A DNA stretch of 5,817 nt from Phycisphaerae bacterium (GTDB lineage: Bacteria > Planctomycetota > Phycisphaerae > Sedimentisphaerales > SG8-4), in the NCBI GenBank assembly GCA_030614945.1, contig JAUXAH010000128.1, positions 1 through 5,817 on the forward strand, in the 5' to 3' direction. The notes below the pieces were generated by a model that worked only from the letters and a program-made list of their open reading frames with translations, was not told where the DNA came from and did not search any database. Made by a program: the position numbers and the translations under genes. Shown in pieces: positions 1 to 5,817 of the stretch; within the stretch, counting starts at the first letter, position 1; each line of letters begins with the position of its first letter.

Positions 1-76
1 GCCGACCGCCCTTCCTGGAGCGACCGCCTGGCTGCCACGAGCTTGCCGACCGCCCGCCTTGGAGCGACCGCCTGGC
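1..76. repeat. Two 32-bp direct repeat copies, 44-bp period, at the window edge
   Basis: Positions 1-32 and 45-76 match at 29 of 32 bases; all three differences fall at positions 12, 13 and 15 of the unit. Each copy begins GCCGACCGCC and ends GAGCGACCGCCTGGC. The separating 12 bases (33-44) are unique within the window. The first copy starts at base 1, so the array may continue to the left. The shorter word GACCGCC also recurs inside each copy. Role unknown; it could be a binding-site array, a minisatellite or a degraded coding repeat. Confidence 0.75.
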
Positions 77-151
77 CAGAGATCGCCCGCTGACCTCGAT
101 CGCTGCACCGAGCCTCCGACTGCCTGCGTGCCTGCGCGGGGCACAATCGGC

Positions 152-190
152 GGGCGGGGATCCTCACCCGCCCTCATTCGATCGTTTTTT
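152..190 (+). terminator. Terminator-like hairpin followed by a T6 run (weak)
   Basis: GGGCGGG (152-158) pairs perfectly with CCCGCCC (167-173) across an 8-base loop, and T6 follows at 185-190. The 11 bases between stem and T run are more than a normal intrinsic terminator has, which lowers confidence. An alternative fold uses CGATCG at 179-184 and again at 194-199 with the T run in the loop. If real, it would end transcription entering from the left. Confidence 0.25.
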
Positions 191-271
191 CTCCGATCGC
201 ACTGCGCATGGCGAGCTGAAACAACTGCGGCAAGCCACTCAGCCCAGTCCTCCAAAATTGAGACTCCAGAT

Positions 272-307
272 CCCGCCCCCCCTCCCCCCGCCCCCCCACC
301 CCCACCC
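272..307 (-). other. G-quadruplex / i-motif candidate (six consecutive C runs)
   Basis: Six C runs of 3, 7, 6, 7, 5 and 3 bases follow one another, each separated by a single base (g, t, g, a, a). The minus strand therefore carries six G runs with one-base loops, well beyond the usual four-run G-quadruplex rule; the plus strand could form an i-motif. For rightward transcription the G-rich strand is the template. The surrounding 270-349 is also strongly pyrimidine-biased. Whether it folds in the cell is unknown. Confidence 0.6.
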
Positions 308-381
308 GCTCCCTCCCTCGCTCGCGCTCCCGCCCGCCCCCCCACACACTCGCTCGGTCGGTCGCCCACTCCTCGCTTCGC

Positions 382-403
382 CTTCGCCTCCGCTTCGCCT
401 CCG
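382..403. repeat. 11-bp tandem repeat, two perfect copies
   Basis: CTTCGCCTCCG occurs at 382-392 and again at 393-403, and a partial CTTCG precedes at 376-380. An 11-bp period returns at 462-483, where CGGCTCCG occurs at 462-469 and 473-480. Together they mark 370-490 as low-complexity, slippage-prone DNA and not normal coding sequence. Confidence 0.6.
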
Positions 404-596
404 GCCTGGGCCGCTGGCCCGCTTGAGGCCGGGCACAGCCGCCCATCGCTGCGCTGGCCTCCGGCTCCGCTGCGGCTCCGGCTTCGCTCGACTGCCCCAG
501 AAGGCGCGGGAAGCGCGGCCTGCAAGAAAACCTGTCCGAGCTCACGGCCGGCGAACAAGAAATCCTGCAGAGCCCCTCTCGCACCTGGCCCGGGCC

Positions 597-691
597 CGGG
601 CGGGACGGCCCCCGCAGTCCTCGGATCCGTTCCCTCGAGGGCGCCGCCTCATCCCACCTTGCCCCGGGCGCCAGGTGAGCCGTCCCGCCCG
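597..691. repeat. 13-bp perfect inverted repeat just upstream of the promoter
   Basis: CGGGCGGGACGGC (597-609) is exactly complementary to GCCGTCCCGCCCG (679-691), leaving 69 bases between the arms. The left arm overlaps a 14-bp perfect palindrome, GCCCGGGCCCGGGC (588-601). The right arm ends about 20 bases before the putative -35 element. It could be a cruciform, a binding site for a dimeric regulator or a recombination-type site; nothing in the sequence decides between these. Confidence 0.5.
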
Positions 692-712
692 CGATCTTGA
701 CCCAAAATTCAC

Positions 713-740
713 TTGCCTGTCACAGATTTACCTGTATAAT
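713..740 (+). promoter_or_regulatory. Sigma70-type promoter for the structural operon
   Basis: TATAAT at 735-740 is a perfect -10 box. TTGCCT at 713-718, 16 bases upstream, matches four of six bases of TTGACA as the -35 box. The predicted start is near 747, giving a leader of about 63 nt before the ATG at 811. CCTGT occurs three times around the core (716-720, 731-735, 744-748) and ACTTGCC twice (711-717, 749-755), so the site may carry an operator. The AT-rich patch at 700-740 stands out sharply from the GC-rich DNA upstream. Confidence 0.7.
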
Positions 741-2462: not shown

Positions 2463-3960
2463 GCACTGGTGGATCATCGTAGGCCACGGCGAGGAACCAG
2501 GATACACCGACTTGCGCGTCTACGCCTCCACCGACGTCGAGGATCACCTTTTCATGGCCTGGGGCCTCCACAAGCCCACCATGCGCGAGATCTGGCGCAT
2601 CGTCCGAGGCAAACGAATCTTCTGCGGCTTCAACTACATCTGGGACACCCCCTATATCGCCGAGCAGACCGACGAGGGCGACACCCTGGCCCACCGCTTC
2701 TACATCTCAGGCCTACCACCCCAATCCACCATCTGGTACTACCTGAACGCGCCCGGCGGTCCCTACGGCCTGGAGATCCAGGGACCCCTCATGCACGTCG
2801 AGCTACTGCGCCCCGCAGCCTGGGCCATCCGAGCCTATTTCGCCTCTCGAACCAACGGCATGTACAAGACCACCGACTTCTCAGGCCCCGGCGGACCCCA
2901 ACCAAACTGGATCCCAGACAACGACGGCCTCGCCTTCCTGGACATCATCCAGGCTTGCCCCGATCCGTGGGATCCCTACCATCGCCGCTTTGTCGTCTGT
3001 CACGGCGACATCTACCGCATGGACAACATCTTCATCGACGAGCCAGCCACCGCAACCCAGGTGCTTTCCGAGGCCGAGGCCATCTACATGACCGGCGGCA
3101 ACCCAGGCGACATCCACTGGATCGCCGGTGCACCCAACTACGAGGGCCACTTCTACGTCCTCTGGCGCTCGGATCTCAATGGCACCGGCTTCTGGTGCCT
3201 GATCACCGAGGACTATGGCGCCACCTGGACCGCCCACCTCATCGACCCCACCGCCTTCTCCTACAGCGCGGGCAATATCATGCCAGGCACCGACCAGGGA
3301 GAAAGTCCTTACCCGCCAGGAGACGCCATCTACTGCGCCCTCAATCTTGGCGCCGGAGGCCACGTGGCGGTCCGCCGATCCTTCGATCAGGGCAAAACTT
3401 GGGCCAACACACCCGGCCCACTCCCCGGCGTCAGCGTCTGGGGTCCGCGCCTTCACGTCGAACGCGCCGACCAAAGCATCGTCTACGTCGGCGCCCAGAT
3501 GGGCGGCACGGATCTCTGGCGAACCCTGAACCATGGCTTCACCTGGACCCTCTGCGACCAGGCAAACCAACTCGGCATCCTGGTCAGCCCCAGGGCCAAC
3601 TACGACACCATGGACACACGCCAGTCCAACCCGGACGAGATTCGCGTCCTCAATGACCTGCACATCTGGAAATCAAGCGATTTTGGCATCATCTGGCGCG
3701 ACCAGGGGCCGGTCCAGTACTCAACCTTGCACCTGCACTTCAAAGACCACTCGCCCGACTTTCTCTATCTGGCCCGCAACTTTGACGCCCCCGCACCCGA
3801 TGGCCTCTATGCCCAACACGTGCTCTTTGTCAGCACCGATGAAGGCTCCAACATGTTCGGCAAGGCCGGAGATCACGTCGATCAAGCCGACGGCGGGGGG
3901 GACTCTATCCCTTGGAACTGTGGCGGCGTCGCCGATGAAGGCGTCTTGACCCTACCCTGA
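2443..3960 (+). CDS. Asp-box (BNR) beta-propeller tail fibre-like protein (505 aa)
   Basis: Probable phage tail fibre or host-recognition protein. Residues about 8-105 resemble a fibronectin-III-like or baseplate-type N-domain (LFMAWG at 36-41, HRFYISGLPP at 84-93, IWYYL at 97-101). The rest carries Asp-box motifs of the S-x-D-x-G-x-T-W type: TEDYGATW 255-262, SFDQGKTW 313-320 (perfect), TLNHGFTW 361-368, SSDFGIIW 411-418, and a degenerate STDEGS at 464-469. A further weak one is near 143. The roughly 50-residue spacing is that of propeller blades. Sialidases and sortilin-type propellers share these motifs, but I see no clear sialidase catalytic set (such as an N-terminal arginine triad), so binding is more likely than cleavage. 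The start at 2443 follows AAGGGG (2428-2433) by 9 bases; the open frame runs further upstream but there overlaps the previous gene. A G7 run lies at 3895-3901. Confidence 0.85.
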   Translation: MPIARPEHWWIIVGHGEEPGYTDLRVYASTDVEDHLFMAWGLHKPTMREIWRIVRGKRIFCGFNYIWDTPYIAEQTDEGDTLAHRFYISGLPPQSTIWYYLNAPGGPYGLEIQGPLMHVELLRPAAWAIRAYFASRTNGMYKTTDFSGPGGPQPNWIPDNDGLAFLDIIQACPDPWDPYHRRFVVCHGDIYRMDNIFIDEPATATQVLSEAEAIYMTGGNPGDIHWIAGAPNYEGHFYVLWRSDLNGTGFWCLITEDYGATWTAHLIDPTAFSYSAGNIMPGTDQGESPYPPGDAIYCALNLGAGGHVAVRRSFDQGKTWANTPGPLPGVSVWGPRLHVERADQSIVYVGAQMGGTDLWRTLNHGFTWTLCDQANQLGILVSPRANYDTMDTRQSNPDEIRVLNDLHIWKSSDFGIIWRDQGPVQYSTLHLHFKDHSPDFLYLARNFDAPAPDGLYAQHVLFVSTDEGSNMFGKAGDHVDQADGGGDSIPWNCGGVADEGVLTLP

Positions 3961-3979
3961 CCCAGAAAGGATCCCTGCC

Positions 3980-4126
3980 ATGATCCCTGAACAATTCCAC
4001 CACCCCGTCTGGCTCTGGTGGCGCAAAAACTGGCCGTTCCTGGCCGTCACGGTGGCCGTCTACGCTCTCCTCTCCTTGCTCACTCGCCCGAACGCACCTC
4101 CACCCACGAAAGGACCCCTGCCATGA
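3980..4126 (+). CDS. Small Trp-rich single-span membrane protein (48 aa)
   Basis: Unknown function; holin-like or accessory membrane protein is possible. An aromatic, basic N-terminus (V-W-L-W-W-R-K-N-W at 10-18) runs into one hydrophobic span at about 18-34, then a short Pro-rich tail (NAPPPTKGPLP). The basic residues just before the span favour an N-inside orientation. AAAGG at 3966-3970 lies 9 bases before the ATG, and the stop overlaps the next start in an ATGA, so the two are probably translationally coupled. Another small Trp-rich span protein is encoded at 4784-4918. A position after the tail fibre gene is a common site for lysis genes, but one span and no lysin neighbour here leave that unproven. 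Confidence 0.75.
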   Translation: MIPEQFHHPVWLWWRKNWPFLAVTVAVYALLSLLTRPNAPPPTKGPLP

Positions 4127-4314
4127 AACAACTGCCACTCGAACCGAAAAAACCGAGGCCACCGCCGAAGCCAATCACCACACTCATGCTCCAGGCACCC
4201 TTGCCTGACTTTCTCGACACCCTGCCCATACTAATCAGCATAACGGGCGGTGGGAGCGGCCGGCAGGGACCGCCTCCCGCCGCCCCCCTGGGGAGACCTG
4301 CCAATGACAACTAA
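4123..4314 (+). CDS. Small Pro/Gly-rich hypothetical protein (63 aa)
   Basis: Not recognised. The N-terminus is Lys/Pro-rich (EPKKPRPPPKP at 7-17), followed by a short hydrophobic patch (LDTLPILISI at 31-40) and a GGGSG turn leading to PPPAAPLG. The patch is too short for a confident membrane span. The start at 4123 overlaps the upstream stop (ATGA) and has AAAGGA at 4109-4114, 8 bases upstream. The GGGSG...PPPAAP part is encoded by the two arms of a strong hairpin (4245-4285), so RNA structure may constrain this end as much as the protein does. The stop lies 11 bases inside the next gene. It is supported mainly by start context and operon position. Confidence 0.6.
   Translation: MKQLPLEPKKPRPPPKPITTLMLQAPLPDFLDTLPILISITGGGSGRQGPPPAAPLGRPANDN
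4245..4285 (+). promoter_or_regulatory. Strong hairpin inside a coding region, next to a ribosome binding site
   Basis: GGGCGGTGGGAGCGG (4245-4259) pairs with 4270-4285 to give 15 base pairs, with one G-U wobble (4251/4279), one bulged C (4273) and a 10-base loop. It ends 4 bases before the GGGGAGA site (4290-4296) of the next gene. No T run follows, so it is not a standard terminator. It could block or pace ribosomes, couple translation of the two genes, or act as a processing or stability element. Confidence 0.6.
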
Positions 4315-4528
4315 TGACGTACCTGCCATCCTGGACCAGATCCTGGATCCCTTGAACAACATCCAGGAGCAGGTCCAGGCTGCCCTTCTCCTGGCCCAGC
4401 GCAACCACCTCCCGCGCCCGTTCCTGCATACCATCCAGGCCGCCATCCATGACCTCGAACACACCTGGGAGACCCTGAACGAGATCTGCACCACCCTTGA
4501 CCCCAATCGGGGCAAATCACAACTCTAG
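4304..4528 (+). CDS. Small helical protein, first of a related pair (74 aa)
   Basis: Not recognised. The protein is soluble-looking and almost wholly helical: a first amphipathic helix at about 7-32 (PAILDQILDPLNNIQEQVQAALLLAQ), a PRP turn at 37-39, and a second at about 40-66. Residues 27-66 align without gaps to residues 25-64 of the next protein (11 of 40 identical, with matching aromatics and acids), so the two are probably tandem duplicates. GGGGAGA at 4290-4296 lies 7 bases before the ATG, and the start context (CCTGCCA-ATGACA) resembles its neighbours. An ATG at 4314 is out of frame. Two-helix proteins like this often act as small adaptors or chaperones, which is speculation here. Confidence 0.75.
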   Translation: MTTNDVPAILDQILDPLNNIQEQVQAALLLAQRNHLPRPFLHTIQAAIHDLEHTWETLNEICTTLDPNRGKSQL

Positions 4529-4540
4529 GAGGTCCCTGCC

Positions 4541-4768
4541 ATGACCACAGTACAAAGCAAGCTCCACACTTGCCACCGCCTGGCCACACCTATCCGAGAT
4601 CTCATGCAAGAAGCCCTGGATCAGGCCAAAGACCAGGGCTACGACCCCCACTGGATCAACGCCATCCTCAAGGCCATCAACGACTACGACGACGCCTACG
4701 CTCGCCTCTACAACATCGCACTCTGCCTTGACCGCCGACCCGTGCCCGCTCGATCCCACCGCCACTGA
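4541..4768 (+). CDS. Small helical protein, second of a related pair (75 aa)
   Basis: Not recognised by name. It starts MTT like its upstream neighbour and shares its length and predicted two-helix layout: helix at about 16-32, loop GYDPHW at 33-38, and helix at about 39-64 (INAILKAINDYDDAYARLYNIALCLD). It then ends in a short basic tail (RRPVPARSHRH). The second helix is notably acidic and tyrosine-rich. AGGAGG at 4528-4533 lies 7 bases before the ATG, in the recurring context TCCCTGCC-ATGACC. The gap to the upstream stop is 12 bases and to the next start 15 bases, consistent with one transcript. Divergence from its sister suggests an old duplication with separate roles. Confidence 0.75.
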   Translation: MTTVQSKLHTCHRLATPIRDLMQEALDQAKDQGYDPHWINAILKAINDYDDAYARLYNIALCLDRRPVPARSHRH

Positions 4769-4783
4769 TCAGGAGGCCAGGCA

Positions 4784-4918
4784 ATGACGCCACCTCCACC
4801 CTGGCAGTGGCCACATCCTCGATCCTGGCGGGAGGTCTATGCGAAAATCATGGGCCTCCTGCTAGGCTTCCTTGCCGTCGCCTACCTCCTCGACTGGCTG
4901 AAAGGGGTCATCCCGTGA
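4784..4918 (+). CDS. Second small Trp-rich single-span membrane protein (44 aa)
   Basis: Unknown function. The N-terminus is Pro/Trp-rich and basic (PPPPWQWPHPRSWR at 3-16), followed by one hydrophobic span at about 22-36 (IMGLLLGFLAVAYLL) and a short DWLKGVIP end. This is the same architecture as the 48-aa protein at 3980: aromatic belt, basic residues, single span, very short length. Direct residue identity is low, so common descent is unproven. A consensus AGGAGG (4771-4776) lies 7 bases before the ATG. The stop overlaps the next start in a GTGA, implying coupled translation. Holin, anti-holin, superinfection or phage-membrane anchor roles are all possible, and none is shown by the sequence. 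Confidence 0.75.
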   Translation: MTPPPPWQWPHPRSWREVYAKIMGLLLGFLAVAYLLDWLKGVIP

Positions 4919-5205
4919 AAGCAGACATCTTCATCCAAGGCCACCTTTGCGCCACCATCAGCATCCCCAGCGACAGCCTCCTGGGTCTCTTGGCCAGAGG
5001 CATGATCACTGAAGCCGCCCCCAAACTCCAACGGCTCGCACGAGACCTATCCGATCTCGACCAGGTGCAATGCTCTGTCAGCCTGCGCATCCGAACGCCT
5101 ACCCCCTACTCTCGTCGCTTTCTCGAACAGAACCGCCAGGAGCAAACCTCATGGCCAGACAAAGGAAAACCCAACGGATCATCGACAAGGCCCACGAAGC
5201 CCTGA
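4915..5205 (+). CDS. Hypothetical alpha/beta protein, GTG start (96 aa)
   Basis: Not recognised. The N-terminal half alternates strand, helix and strand: KADIFIQGHLCATISIP at 2-18, a helix at about 20-45 (SLLGLLARGMITEAAPKLQRLARDL) and QVQCSVSLRIRTP at 50-62. A polar, basic and probably disordered tail follows from about 63. The GTG at 4915 overlaps the upstream stop and has AAAGGGG (4901-4907) 7 bases ahead. The open frame extends further upstream to an ATG at 4807, but that would lie inside the membrane-protein gene and has no better site. The last 55 bases overlap the next gene, so the disordered tail is encoded by DNA that also encodes that enzyme's N-terminus. Confidence 0.75.
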   Translation: MKADIFIQGHLCATISIPSDSLLGLLARGMITEAAPKLQRLARDLSDLDQVQCSVSLRIRTPTPYSRRFLEQNRQEQTSWPDKGKPNGSSTRPTKP

Positions 5206-5817
5206 CCGAGTACCATCCCATGACAGTCCGTCAGGTCTACTACCGGCTCGTGGCCGCCCACGTGGTCGAGAACACCAGGGGCCGCTACAAGGCAGTCTGC
5301 AACGCCCTCGTCGCCGCCAGGCAAGAAGGCACCATCCCCTGGCCCTGGATCGAGGACCGCCTGCGCCGCCCCCGACGCGTCCCCATGTGGCACGGCGTCT
5401 CCCACTACGCAGCCTCAGCCCGACAATGGTACAAGCGCAGTATCTGGCCCACCCAACCCCGCCTGGTGGAAGTCTGGCTCGAAAAGGACGCCCTCTCAGG
5501 CATCTTTGAGGACATCCTACAACCCTTTGGCGTCACCCTGAACGTCGGCCGAGGCTACGATGGATGGTCCTCCATCCATCAGGCTGCCGCTCGCTACGCC
5601 AGCTGGCCCCAACCCTGCGCCATCCTCTACTTTGGAGACTTTGACCCCTCAGGCCGCGACATGATCCGTTCCCTCAAGGAGCGCATCGGCTTTTTCGGGA
5701 CAAGTCCCAATCTCAAGATCTGTGCCATTCTCAAGTCGGACATCGAGGAACACGACTTGCCTCCCGATTTCACCAAGTCCACAGACAGCCGCCAGGCCGC
5801 TTTCGTGGCCGAACACG
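5151..5817 (+). CDS. Stand-alone Spo11/topoisomerase VI A-like Toprim protein (Mini-A type), 3' end cut by window
   Basis: Probable DNA-cleaving or DNA-binding enzyme related to the A subunit of topoisomerase VI and Spo11; 222 residues are visible. Residues about 1-95 fit the winged-helix (5Y-CAP) part, with T-V-R-Q-V-Y-Y-R at 25-32 matching the RxxYY motif that holds the catalytic tyrosine (Y30 or Y31). IPWPWIEDR at 62-70 is also characteristic of this phage/prophage group. The Toprim domain has its glutamate in V-W-L-E-K-D at 108-113 and the metal-binding DxD in Y-F-G-D-F-D-P-S-G at 160-168. LPPDFTKSTDSR at 203-214 matches the usual C-terminal segment. AGGAG at 5138-5142 lies 8 bases before the ATG. 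The start overlaps the upstream gene by 55 bases. No B-subunit ATPase is visible, as expected for Mini-A proteins of mobile elements, whose biological role is not settled. No motif residue appears lost, so it is probably active. Confidence 0.85.
   Translation, partial: MARQRKTQRIIDKAHEALTEYHPMTVRQVYYRLVAAHVVENTRGRYKAVCNALVAARQEGTIPWPWIEDRLRRPRRVPMWHGVSHYAASARQWYKRSIWPTQPRLVEVWLEKDALSGIFEDILQPFGVTLNVGRGYDGWSSIHQAAARYASWPQPCAILYFGDFDPSGRDMIRSLKERIGFFGTSPNLKICAILKSDIEEHDLPPDFTKSTDSRQAAFVAEH

What the first reader, a model, noticed from the sequence alone, without database searches (positions are those of the whole stretch)
5151..5817. Intact Mini-A-type Spo11/TopoVI-A-like protein in a phage operon with no B subunit in view
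Both chemical motifs are present: RxxYY near residue 30, and Toprim E111 and D163/D165. This suggests a working tyrosine transesterase or nuclease, not a relic. Stand-alone TopoVI-A homologues of mobile elements have poorly known functions. Here the gene directly follows, and overlaps by 55 nt, a cassette of small unknown proteins that could be its partners or regulators.
Basis: partly seen in the sequence, partly recalled or inferred. Interest (0 to 1): 0.75.

Follow-up and report, generated by a model that had tools for sequence, protein, structure and literature searches.

The report
Phage Mini-A topoisomerase-like enzyme gene
The last gene of this DNA fragment encodes a member of Mini-A, a known but little-studied family of virus and plasmid enzymes related to the protein that breaks DNA in meiosis; the cutting residues that can be seen are intact and no helper subunit was recognised.

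Summary
Window 5151-5817 (+), open at the 3' end, encodes 222 residues of a roughly 275-aa protein matching phrog_6247 'DNA topoisomerase' (E 1.3e-45). It aligns to Pseudomonas phage NP1 (33%, E 2e-29), which print names 'Mini-A' (PMC7614492), and to an archaeal plasmid gene annotated 'Topo Mini-A'. So it belongs to a named, widespread family. The catalytic tyrosine should be Y31, not Y30: Y31 is present in 339 of 339 relatives with a letter there, R27 in 339 of 339, D163 and D165 in 341 of 341, E111 in 340 of 341. These five align to topoisomerase VI A R102/Y106/E202/D254/D256 in 20 of 20 realignments. Three Pfam families for GHKL and TopoVI-B transducer domains gave 0 hits in 40 Mini-A records. 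No neighbour family is constant, and the overlapping upstream ORF has no relative besides itself among 5.8 billion proteins, so the 'partner cassette' idea is not supported. Best reading: a tyrosine DNA transesterase for replication or recombination, without its own B subunit. The mechanism is inferred; nothing was assayed.

The parts
5151..5817 (+). Mini-A (phrog_6247) gene, 3'-truncated by the window end; 222 of about 275 residues
5138..5142 (+). Shine-Dalgarno-like AGGAG for the 5151 start
   Evidence: close relatives start at the same residue
5229..5243 (+). codons for R27-Q-V-Y30-Y31; Y31 (5241-5243) is the catalytic candidate
   Evidence: R27 339/339 and Y31 339/339 of rows with a letter
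5481..5486 (+). codons for E111-K112, first Toprim acidic residue
   Evidence: E 340/341, K 341/341
5637..5645 (+). codons for D163-F-D165, Toprim DxD
   Evidence: both 341/341
4915..5205 (+). upstream 96-aa ORF overlapping Mini-A by 55 nt; orphan
   Evidence: no match in the phages collection at E<=1
3980..4918 (+). five small ORFs (44-75 aa), each with an SD-like run, four of five with a CCTGCC(A)ATG start context; no match in the 120 loci
713..740 (+). sigma-70-like promoter TTGCCT-N16-TATAAT ahead of the co-directional gene run; weak (1 found, 0.8 expected in shuffles)

Best explanation
The gene encodes a Mini-A protein: a compact winged-helix plus Toprim enzyme of the topoisomerase VI A / Spo11 superfamily. 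Shown: family membership, retention of the known active-site residues visible in the window, no recognised B subunit in 40 relatives' records, no constant neighbour. Inferred: two copies form two hybrid active sites; Y31 attacks the backbone with help from the Toprim metal site (E111, D163, D165) and leaves a 5'-phosphotyrosyl break, either resealed or passed on with a free 3' end. It would do so without a GHKL ATPase of its own, in replication, recombination or late processing of the element's DNA.
For: phrog_6247 match (69 of 69 members of A6). Relatives NP1 and LC711082 are named Mini-A. Active site nearly invariant in 341 relatives and aligned to Top6A in 20 of 20 realignments. The only PDB hit at E<=1 with the family profile is TopoVI-A 1d3y_A, E 0.016; profile comparison with five archaeal Top6A gives E 5.1e-5, probability 67%. 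No HATPase_c, HATPase_c_3 or Topo-VIb_trans match in 40 records while controls ring. Mouse SPO11 alone cleaves DNA and stays on the 5' ends (PMC11922746, abstract), so an A-type protein without B can work. Replication neighbours: NP1 (ligase, ThyX, Sak4), BP12C (ThyX), TCUEAP2 (Pol III); DnaB in L042 and L051, Prim-Pol in L047, PriCT_2 in L053, AAA_25 in L050. The neighbour family with most near occurrences (20 of 107 loci, 9 within two genes, 19 of 20 same strand) is a primase-helicase type: D5_N in 6, VapE-like in 5, DUF5906 in 8 of 20 members.
Against: No activity was tested here; PMC8185306 (passages, 2021) says no archaeal Topo VIII or Mini-A had been characterised. The window protein alone finds no topoisomerase in PDB at E<=1 and no NCBIfam model. 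The second profile comparison (A1 against Top6A) is weak: probability 3.4%, E 0.013. The replication-neighbour signal is modest: p 0.011 uncorrected, one of 19 families with four or more loci; in 4 of the 7 annotated phages the nearest genes are not replication genes by name. The fourth acidic residue of Top6A (E342) could not be placed: 0 of 20 and 3 of 60 realignments. The 222-aa model has mean pLDDT 68.9 and no fold search could be run. This copy lacks its C-terminus and downstream context.
Confidence: 0.6

Rival explanations
1. A true topoisomerase: Mini-A borrows a host GHKL protein or an unrecognised phage ATPase and relaxes or decatenates the phage genome by strand passage.
For: The visible cleavage residues are kept. 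Some neighbours are replication genes, where decatenation is useful. Several phage records name it DNA topoisomerase (a name, not a test).
Against: No match to three GHKL or Topo-VIb transducer families in 40 records, no constant partner. Aligned with Top6A, the window protein starts near residue 75 of the L121 Top6A, so it lacks the segment 44-67 in which a triple mutant abolished Top6 relaxation (PMC13040014, passages).
Confidence: 0.2
2. A metal-dependent Toprim nuclease like JetD/MksG, in which the winged-helix tyrosine is not used.
For: Weak hits to JetD_C (E 0.13), PADLOC JetD (E 0.0067), DUF2399 in 6 of 69 relatives.
Against: [quoted passage not shown] its candidate Tyr258 lies in the Toprim domain (PMC10123090, passages). 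JetD_C is far below its cut-off.
Confidence: 0.08
3. A late DNA-processing enzyme acting with HNH and terminase proteins during packaging.
For: A terminase small subunit is next downstream in L041 and, after an HNH gene, in L001; a terminase-like large subunit follows about 1 kb downstream in L042 (gene order). In the window the gene follows ORFs with weak virion-like hits.
Against: In the stretches fetched for NP1, BP12C, AhaSv, LWP01 and two plasmids no gene is annotated as terminase near it (many genes there are hypothetical). In the unbiased clustering the terminase-like family (example L002 14613-16004) is in 4 of 107 loci, always 9 or more genes away.
Confidence: 0.1
4. A decaying relic of a topoisomerase VI A gene.
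For: Window copy is cut by the contig end; the matches in L053 and L054 fall in two frames.
Against: The frame is open, visible catalytic residues are intact, and the 30 closest listed relatives (69-83% identity) mostly keep 275 aa.
Confidence: 0.02

Closest known systems
Mini-A of Pseudomonas phage NP1 and relatives (phrog_6247; family named by Takahashi et al. 2020, cited in PMC8185306 passages; the 2020 paper itself is not held)
   Same: 33% identity, same motifs; no GHKL or Topo-VIb match in the NP1 record
   Different: NP1 gene sits between a DNA ligase (with one small ORF between) and a Sak4 gene; the window gene follows weakly virion-like ORFs and small orphan ORFs
Topoisomerase VI subunit A (Top6A; PDB 2q2e, 1d3y)
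   Same: R-x-x-x-Y, E and DxD residues align; Toprim profile match
   Different: About 75 N-terminal residues shorter; about 16% identity to the L121 Top6A; no Top6B found
Spo11
   Same: Stand-alone A-type cleavage is chemically possible (PMC11922746, abstract)
   Different: No direct sequence comparison made here; eukaryotic, meiotic
Topo VIII
   Same: Type IIB enzyme mainly of mobile elements (PMC8185306, PMC7614492, passages)
   Different: Described there as usually homodimeric; that it joins A-like and B-like parts in one chain is recalled. No GHKL match was found with Mini-A
JetD/MksG nuclease
   Same: Toprim dimer nuclease, weak profile hits

Membership tests
Mini-A | Homology to named Mini-A proteins over the available length | tested here: met
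   phrog_6247 E 1.3e-45; NP1 98% coverage, 33.2%; LC711082 98%, 30.3%
Mini-A | Catalytic tyrosine in the winged-helix R-x-x-x-Y motif | tested here: met
   R27 and Y31; Y31 339/339 of rows with a letter
Mini-A | Toprim E and DxD | tested here: met
   E111, D163, D165
Mini-A | Family-specific C-terminal motif (recalled from the abstract of Takahashi et al. 2020) | not testable with these tools
   Missing from the window; relatives share an E-x-D-A motif at that end, but I cannot say it is the published one
Mini-A | No TopoVI-B gene | tested here: inconclusive
   None in the window; 3' flank absent; 0 of 40 relatives' records
Topoisomerase VI | Partner B subunit with GHKL and transducer domains | tested here: inconclusive
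   0 of 40 Mini-A records; the window's own downstream DNA cannot be seen
Topoisomerase VI | N-terminal segment (residues 44-67) of Top6A | tested here: not met
   Window protein starts at about Top6A residue 75
JetD/MksG | Loss of the winged-helix tyrosine | tested here: not met
   Y31 kept in 339 of 339 rows with a letter
JetD/MksG | Curated family cut-off reached | tested here: not met
   JetD_C 12.1 bits against cut-off 22

The most novel reading that the evidence does not exclude
Mini-A is a B-independent viral Spo11 counterpart: it makes programmed, protein-capped DNA breaks that start recombination-dependent phage replication, with the caps removed by Mre11-Rad50-type nucleases that some of these phages encode themselves (both parts in 2 of 40 records; Mini-A lies about 5 kb from the Mre11-like gene in L002).
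Probability: 0.25. Interest if true: 0.75.

Novelty: new member of a known kind. Interest (0 to 1): 0.3.

Why it matters
The family itself matters: it is large (5279 proteins at E<=0.001), the members aligned here carry the Spo11/TopoVI cleavage residues, no B subunit was recognised in 40 records, and none of the passages I read reports what Mini-A does. Showing what one of them cuts would bear on how stand-alone A-type enzymes are controlled and on the origin of Spo11. This particular copy adds sequence diversity and one unusual neighbourhood but, being truncated on a 5.8-kb contig, is not the best one to study.

Tried and rejected
Small-ORF cassette as partners: not supported. Constant genomic partner: clustering of 1408 neighbour proteins from 107 non-redundant loci (115 with a Mini-A ORF, of 120 held; L033, L036, L054, L060, L110 had none by my caller) gave none; the commonest family occurs in 28 loci, only 3 of them within two genes. 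The lowest p in that table, 0.0017, belongs to a four-locus family (L063, L074, L077, L093) on mixed strands, which I did not follow. Mre11/Rad50 as a general partner: not supported, SbcC Walker B in 2 of 40 and metallophosphatase in 4 of 40 records.

An 'electrostatic clasp' reading (Top6A R102-E342, PMC13040014, passages) looked attractive after one alignment in which the E of the C-terminal E-L-D-A motif fell on E342; realignment gave 0 of 20 and 3 of 60, so I dropped it and claim only five residues. One search counted a residue as aligned if more than 80% of 25 Mini-A rows had it, sampling from 320 rows of more than 265 aa with an ELDA or EVDA motif.

Relatives of window genes 1 and 3 in viral contigs: none; gene 1 in phages: none. 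A 16.6-kb circular Ktedonospora element: the two contig ends were only 61.5% identical in ungapped register, so not shown. Neighbour Pfam scan: of 252 near proteins 236 remained after removing near-duplicates and all 236 were scanned; of 415 far proteins 150 were sampled and 118 of these scanned. AAA_25 was matched by 11 of 236 near and by at most 1 of 118 far (not among the 25 shown). The 341 relatives are the best-scoring rows of two searches plus loci, so they lean to close relatives; 339 of the 342 sequences (window included) are distinct; among the 115 loci alone Y31 is Y in 113 and gap in 2, and the one E111 exception is P0019. Literature: Mini-A searches (the last listed 20 of 28 papers).

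Full report
The observation. The window ends inside an ORF that starts at 5151 and has no stop in its 222 codons. An AGGAG lies 8 nt before that start, and close relatives begin at the same residue, so 5151 is preferred over the upstream in-frame ATG at 5070. The ORF overlaps the ORF 4915-5205 by 55 nt.

What it is. The protein matches phrog_6247, 'DNA topoisomerase', with E 1.3e-45, and so do 69 of 69 members of a diverse alignment. tblastn finds 70 of 50,697 phage records and 43 of 72,556 plasmid records. One is Pseudomonas phage NP1, whose protein is called Mini-A in a figure legend of PMC7614492 (passage); another is an archaeal plasmid, LC711082, annotated Topo Mini-A. Protein searches give 2599 relatives of the window protein and 5279 of the L002 protein at E<=0.001. 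The 30 closest listed are 69-83% identical and mostly 275 aa long, so about 53 residues are missing here. In a tree of 152 sequences the window groups with such metagenome proteins (17-member clade support 0.91, 18-member 0.97). The orphan ORF 4915-5205 is listed with a longest contig of 5817 bases, which suggests that the window is the whole contig.

Link to TopoVI-A. By itself the window protein finds no topoisomerase among solved structures at E<=1, no NCBIfam model, and Pfam TP6A_N only below its cut-off (E 0.005). In the family, TP6A_N reached E<=0.01 in 8 of 69 relatives, TOP6A-Spo11_Toprim in 2 of 69, DUF2399 in 6 of 69. The family profile finds one PDB chain at E<=1, TopoVI-A 1d3y_A at E 0.016. 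Profile comparison with five chromosomal archaeal Top6A proteins gives E 5.1e-5 and probability 67% for the diverse alignment over the Toprim part, but only E 0.013 and probability 3.4% for the narrower alignment, where TVRQVYY is nevertheless laid on TLREVYY. In 20 of 20 realignments the Mini-A R, Y, E, D and D fell, in more than 80% of rows, on Top6A R102, Y106, E202, D254 and D256 (numbering from PMC13040014 passages, mapped through). The fourth acidic residue E342 could not be placed.

Selection on the active site. In 341 relatives (115 from loci, 226 from protein searches; leaning to close relatives), Y31 is Y in 339 with 2 gaps, R27 is R in 339 with 2 gaps, E111 is E in 340 and K in 1, D163 and D165 are D in 341. 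The two Y31 gaps are L040, a fragment, and L053, whose match falls in two frames. Column 30 varies. Hence Y31 is the nucleophile candidate, and a Toprim nuclease without the N-terminal-domain tyrosine, such as MksG (PMC10123090, passages), is a poor model.

No B subunit. None of 10 window ORFs scanned hits a GHKL family. In 40 records holding Mini-A (31 virus contigs, 7 phage genomes, 2 plasmids) there were 0 matches at E<=0.001 to HATPase_c_3, Topo-VIb_trans or HATPase_c, while positive controls rang. Other GHKL families were not searched. Many virus contigs are fragments, so the 7 phage records titled complete genomes (NC_031058, CP011103, OR820514, NC_031228, PV105551, OK632025, NC_029075) and the 2 circular plasmids carry most weight.

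Surroundings. In 3 of 7 annotated phages a replication or nucleotide gene lies next to Mini-A: NP1 (Sak4, with ligase and ThyX near), BP12C (ThyX), TCUEAP2 (Pol III). In the other four the nearest genes are an excisionase (LWP01), a hypothetical gene and an opposite-strand spanin (AhaSv), an HNH gene (BirdInFrench) and hypothetical genes (JWF). Among the closest genome loci it lies by DnaB (L042, L051), Prim-Pol (L047), PriCT_2 (L053) or AAA_25 (L050) proteins, or by HNH and terminase genes (L001, L041, L042). In an unbiased clustering of 1408 neighbours from 107 loci no family recurs in more than 28 loci. The one with most near occurrences is in 20 loci, 9 within two genes, 19 of 20 on the same strand, p 0.011 before correction for the 19 families with four or more loci. 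Its members match D5_N (6 of 20), VapE-like (5 of 20) or DUF5906 (8 of 20), which by established knowledge are primase-helicase-type replication proteins (matches may overlap, and its first member matched none). That is a trend towards replication modules, not a fixed partner. The window's own neighbours are orphans or nearly so: the overlapping 96-aa ORF has no relative besides itself among 5.8 billion proteins, and of the other window ORFs only gene 1 has a match in 120 loci, in L058 (50% over 50 residues, 3.6 kb upstream of that Mini-A).

Mechanism. Shown: homology, conserved active-site residues, no recognised B subunit, no constant partner. From published work: Top6A cuts with a 5'-phosphotyrosyl bond (PMC13040014, passages), and mouse SPO11 cuts without partners and stays on the 5' ends (PMC11922746, abstract). 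Inferred: Mini-A does the same for the element's DNA. Whether it reseals, passes strands or hands breaks to recombination is open. The window protein lacks Top6A's N-terminal segment 44-67; a triple mutant in it abolished relaxation by Top6 (PMC13040014, passages). This leans against Top6-style strand passage but does not exclude it.

Verdict. A real, well-supported new member of a known family. Its interest lies in the untested biochemistry of the family, not in this copy.

Noticed in passing
window 3954-4545: Small ORFs share a start context, SD-like run followed by CCTGCC(A)ATG, at 3980, 4123, 4304 and 4541.
   Followed up: partly
window 1-700: GC-rich stretch without a recognised gene, with a 32-nt direct repeat at 1-32 and 45-76, 91% identical.
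   Followed up: partly
window 713-740: Sigma-70-like TTGCCT-N16-TATAAT ahead of the gene run; about as many expected by chance.
   Followed up: no
L002 863-4927: SbcC/Rad50-like and Mre11-like genes about 5 kb upstream of Mini-A in one virus contig; G011 (contig of L020) also has both domains.
   Followed up: yes
L053 3139-3802; L054 2445-3142: Mini-A matches that fall in two frames; described only.
   Followed up: no
L043 1113-1940 and L044 10001-10828: Two copies of one Mini-A neighbourhood 16.6 kb apart on one Ktedonospora contig, the second with a 922-aa ORF three genes upstream.
   Followed up: partly
L043 561-863; L050 9242-9571: Two near-neighbour proteins match the TubC_N docking domain (2 of 118); one search does not name them, these two are my reading of the sequences.
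   Followed up: no
L063 9020-9856: A family in four loci (L063, L074, L077, L093), each time within two genes of Mini-A, on mixed strands, p 0.0017 uncorrected; the L063 example reads like an actin-like ATPase (recalled motif, not tested).
   Followed up: no
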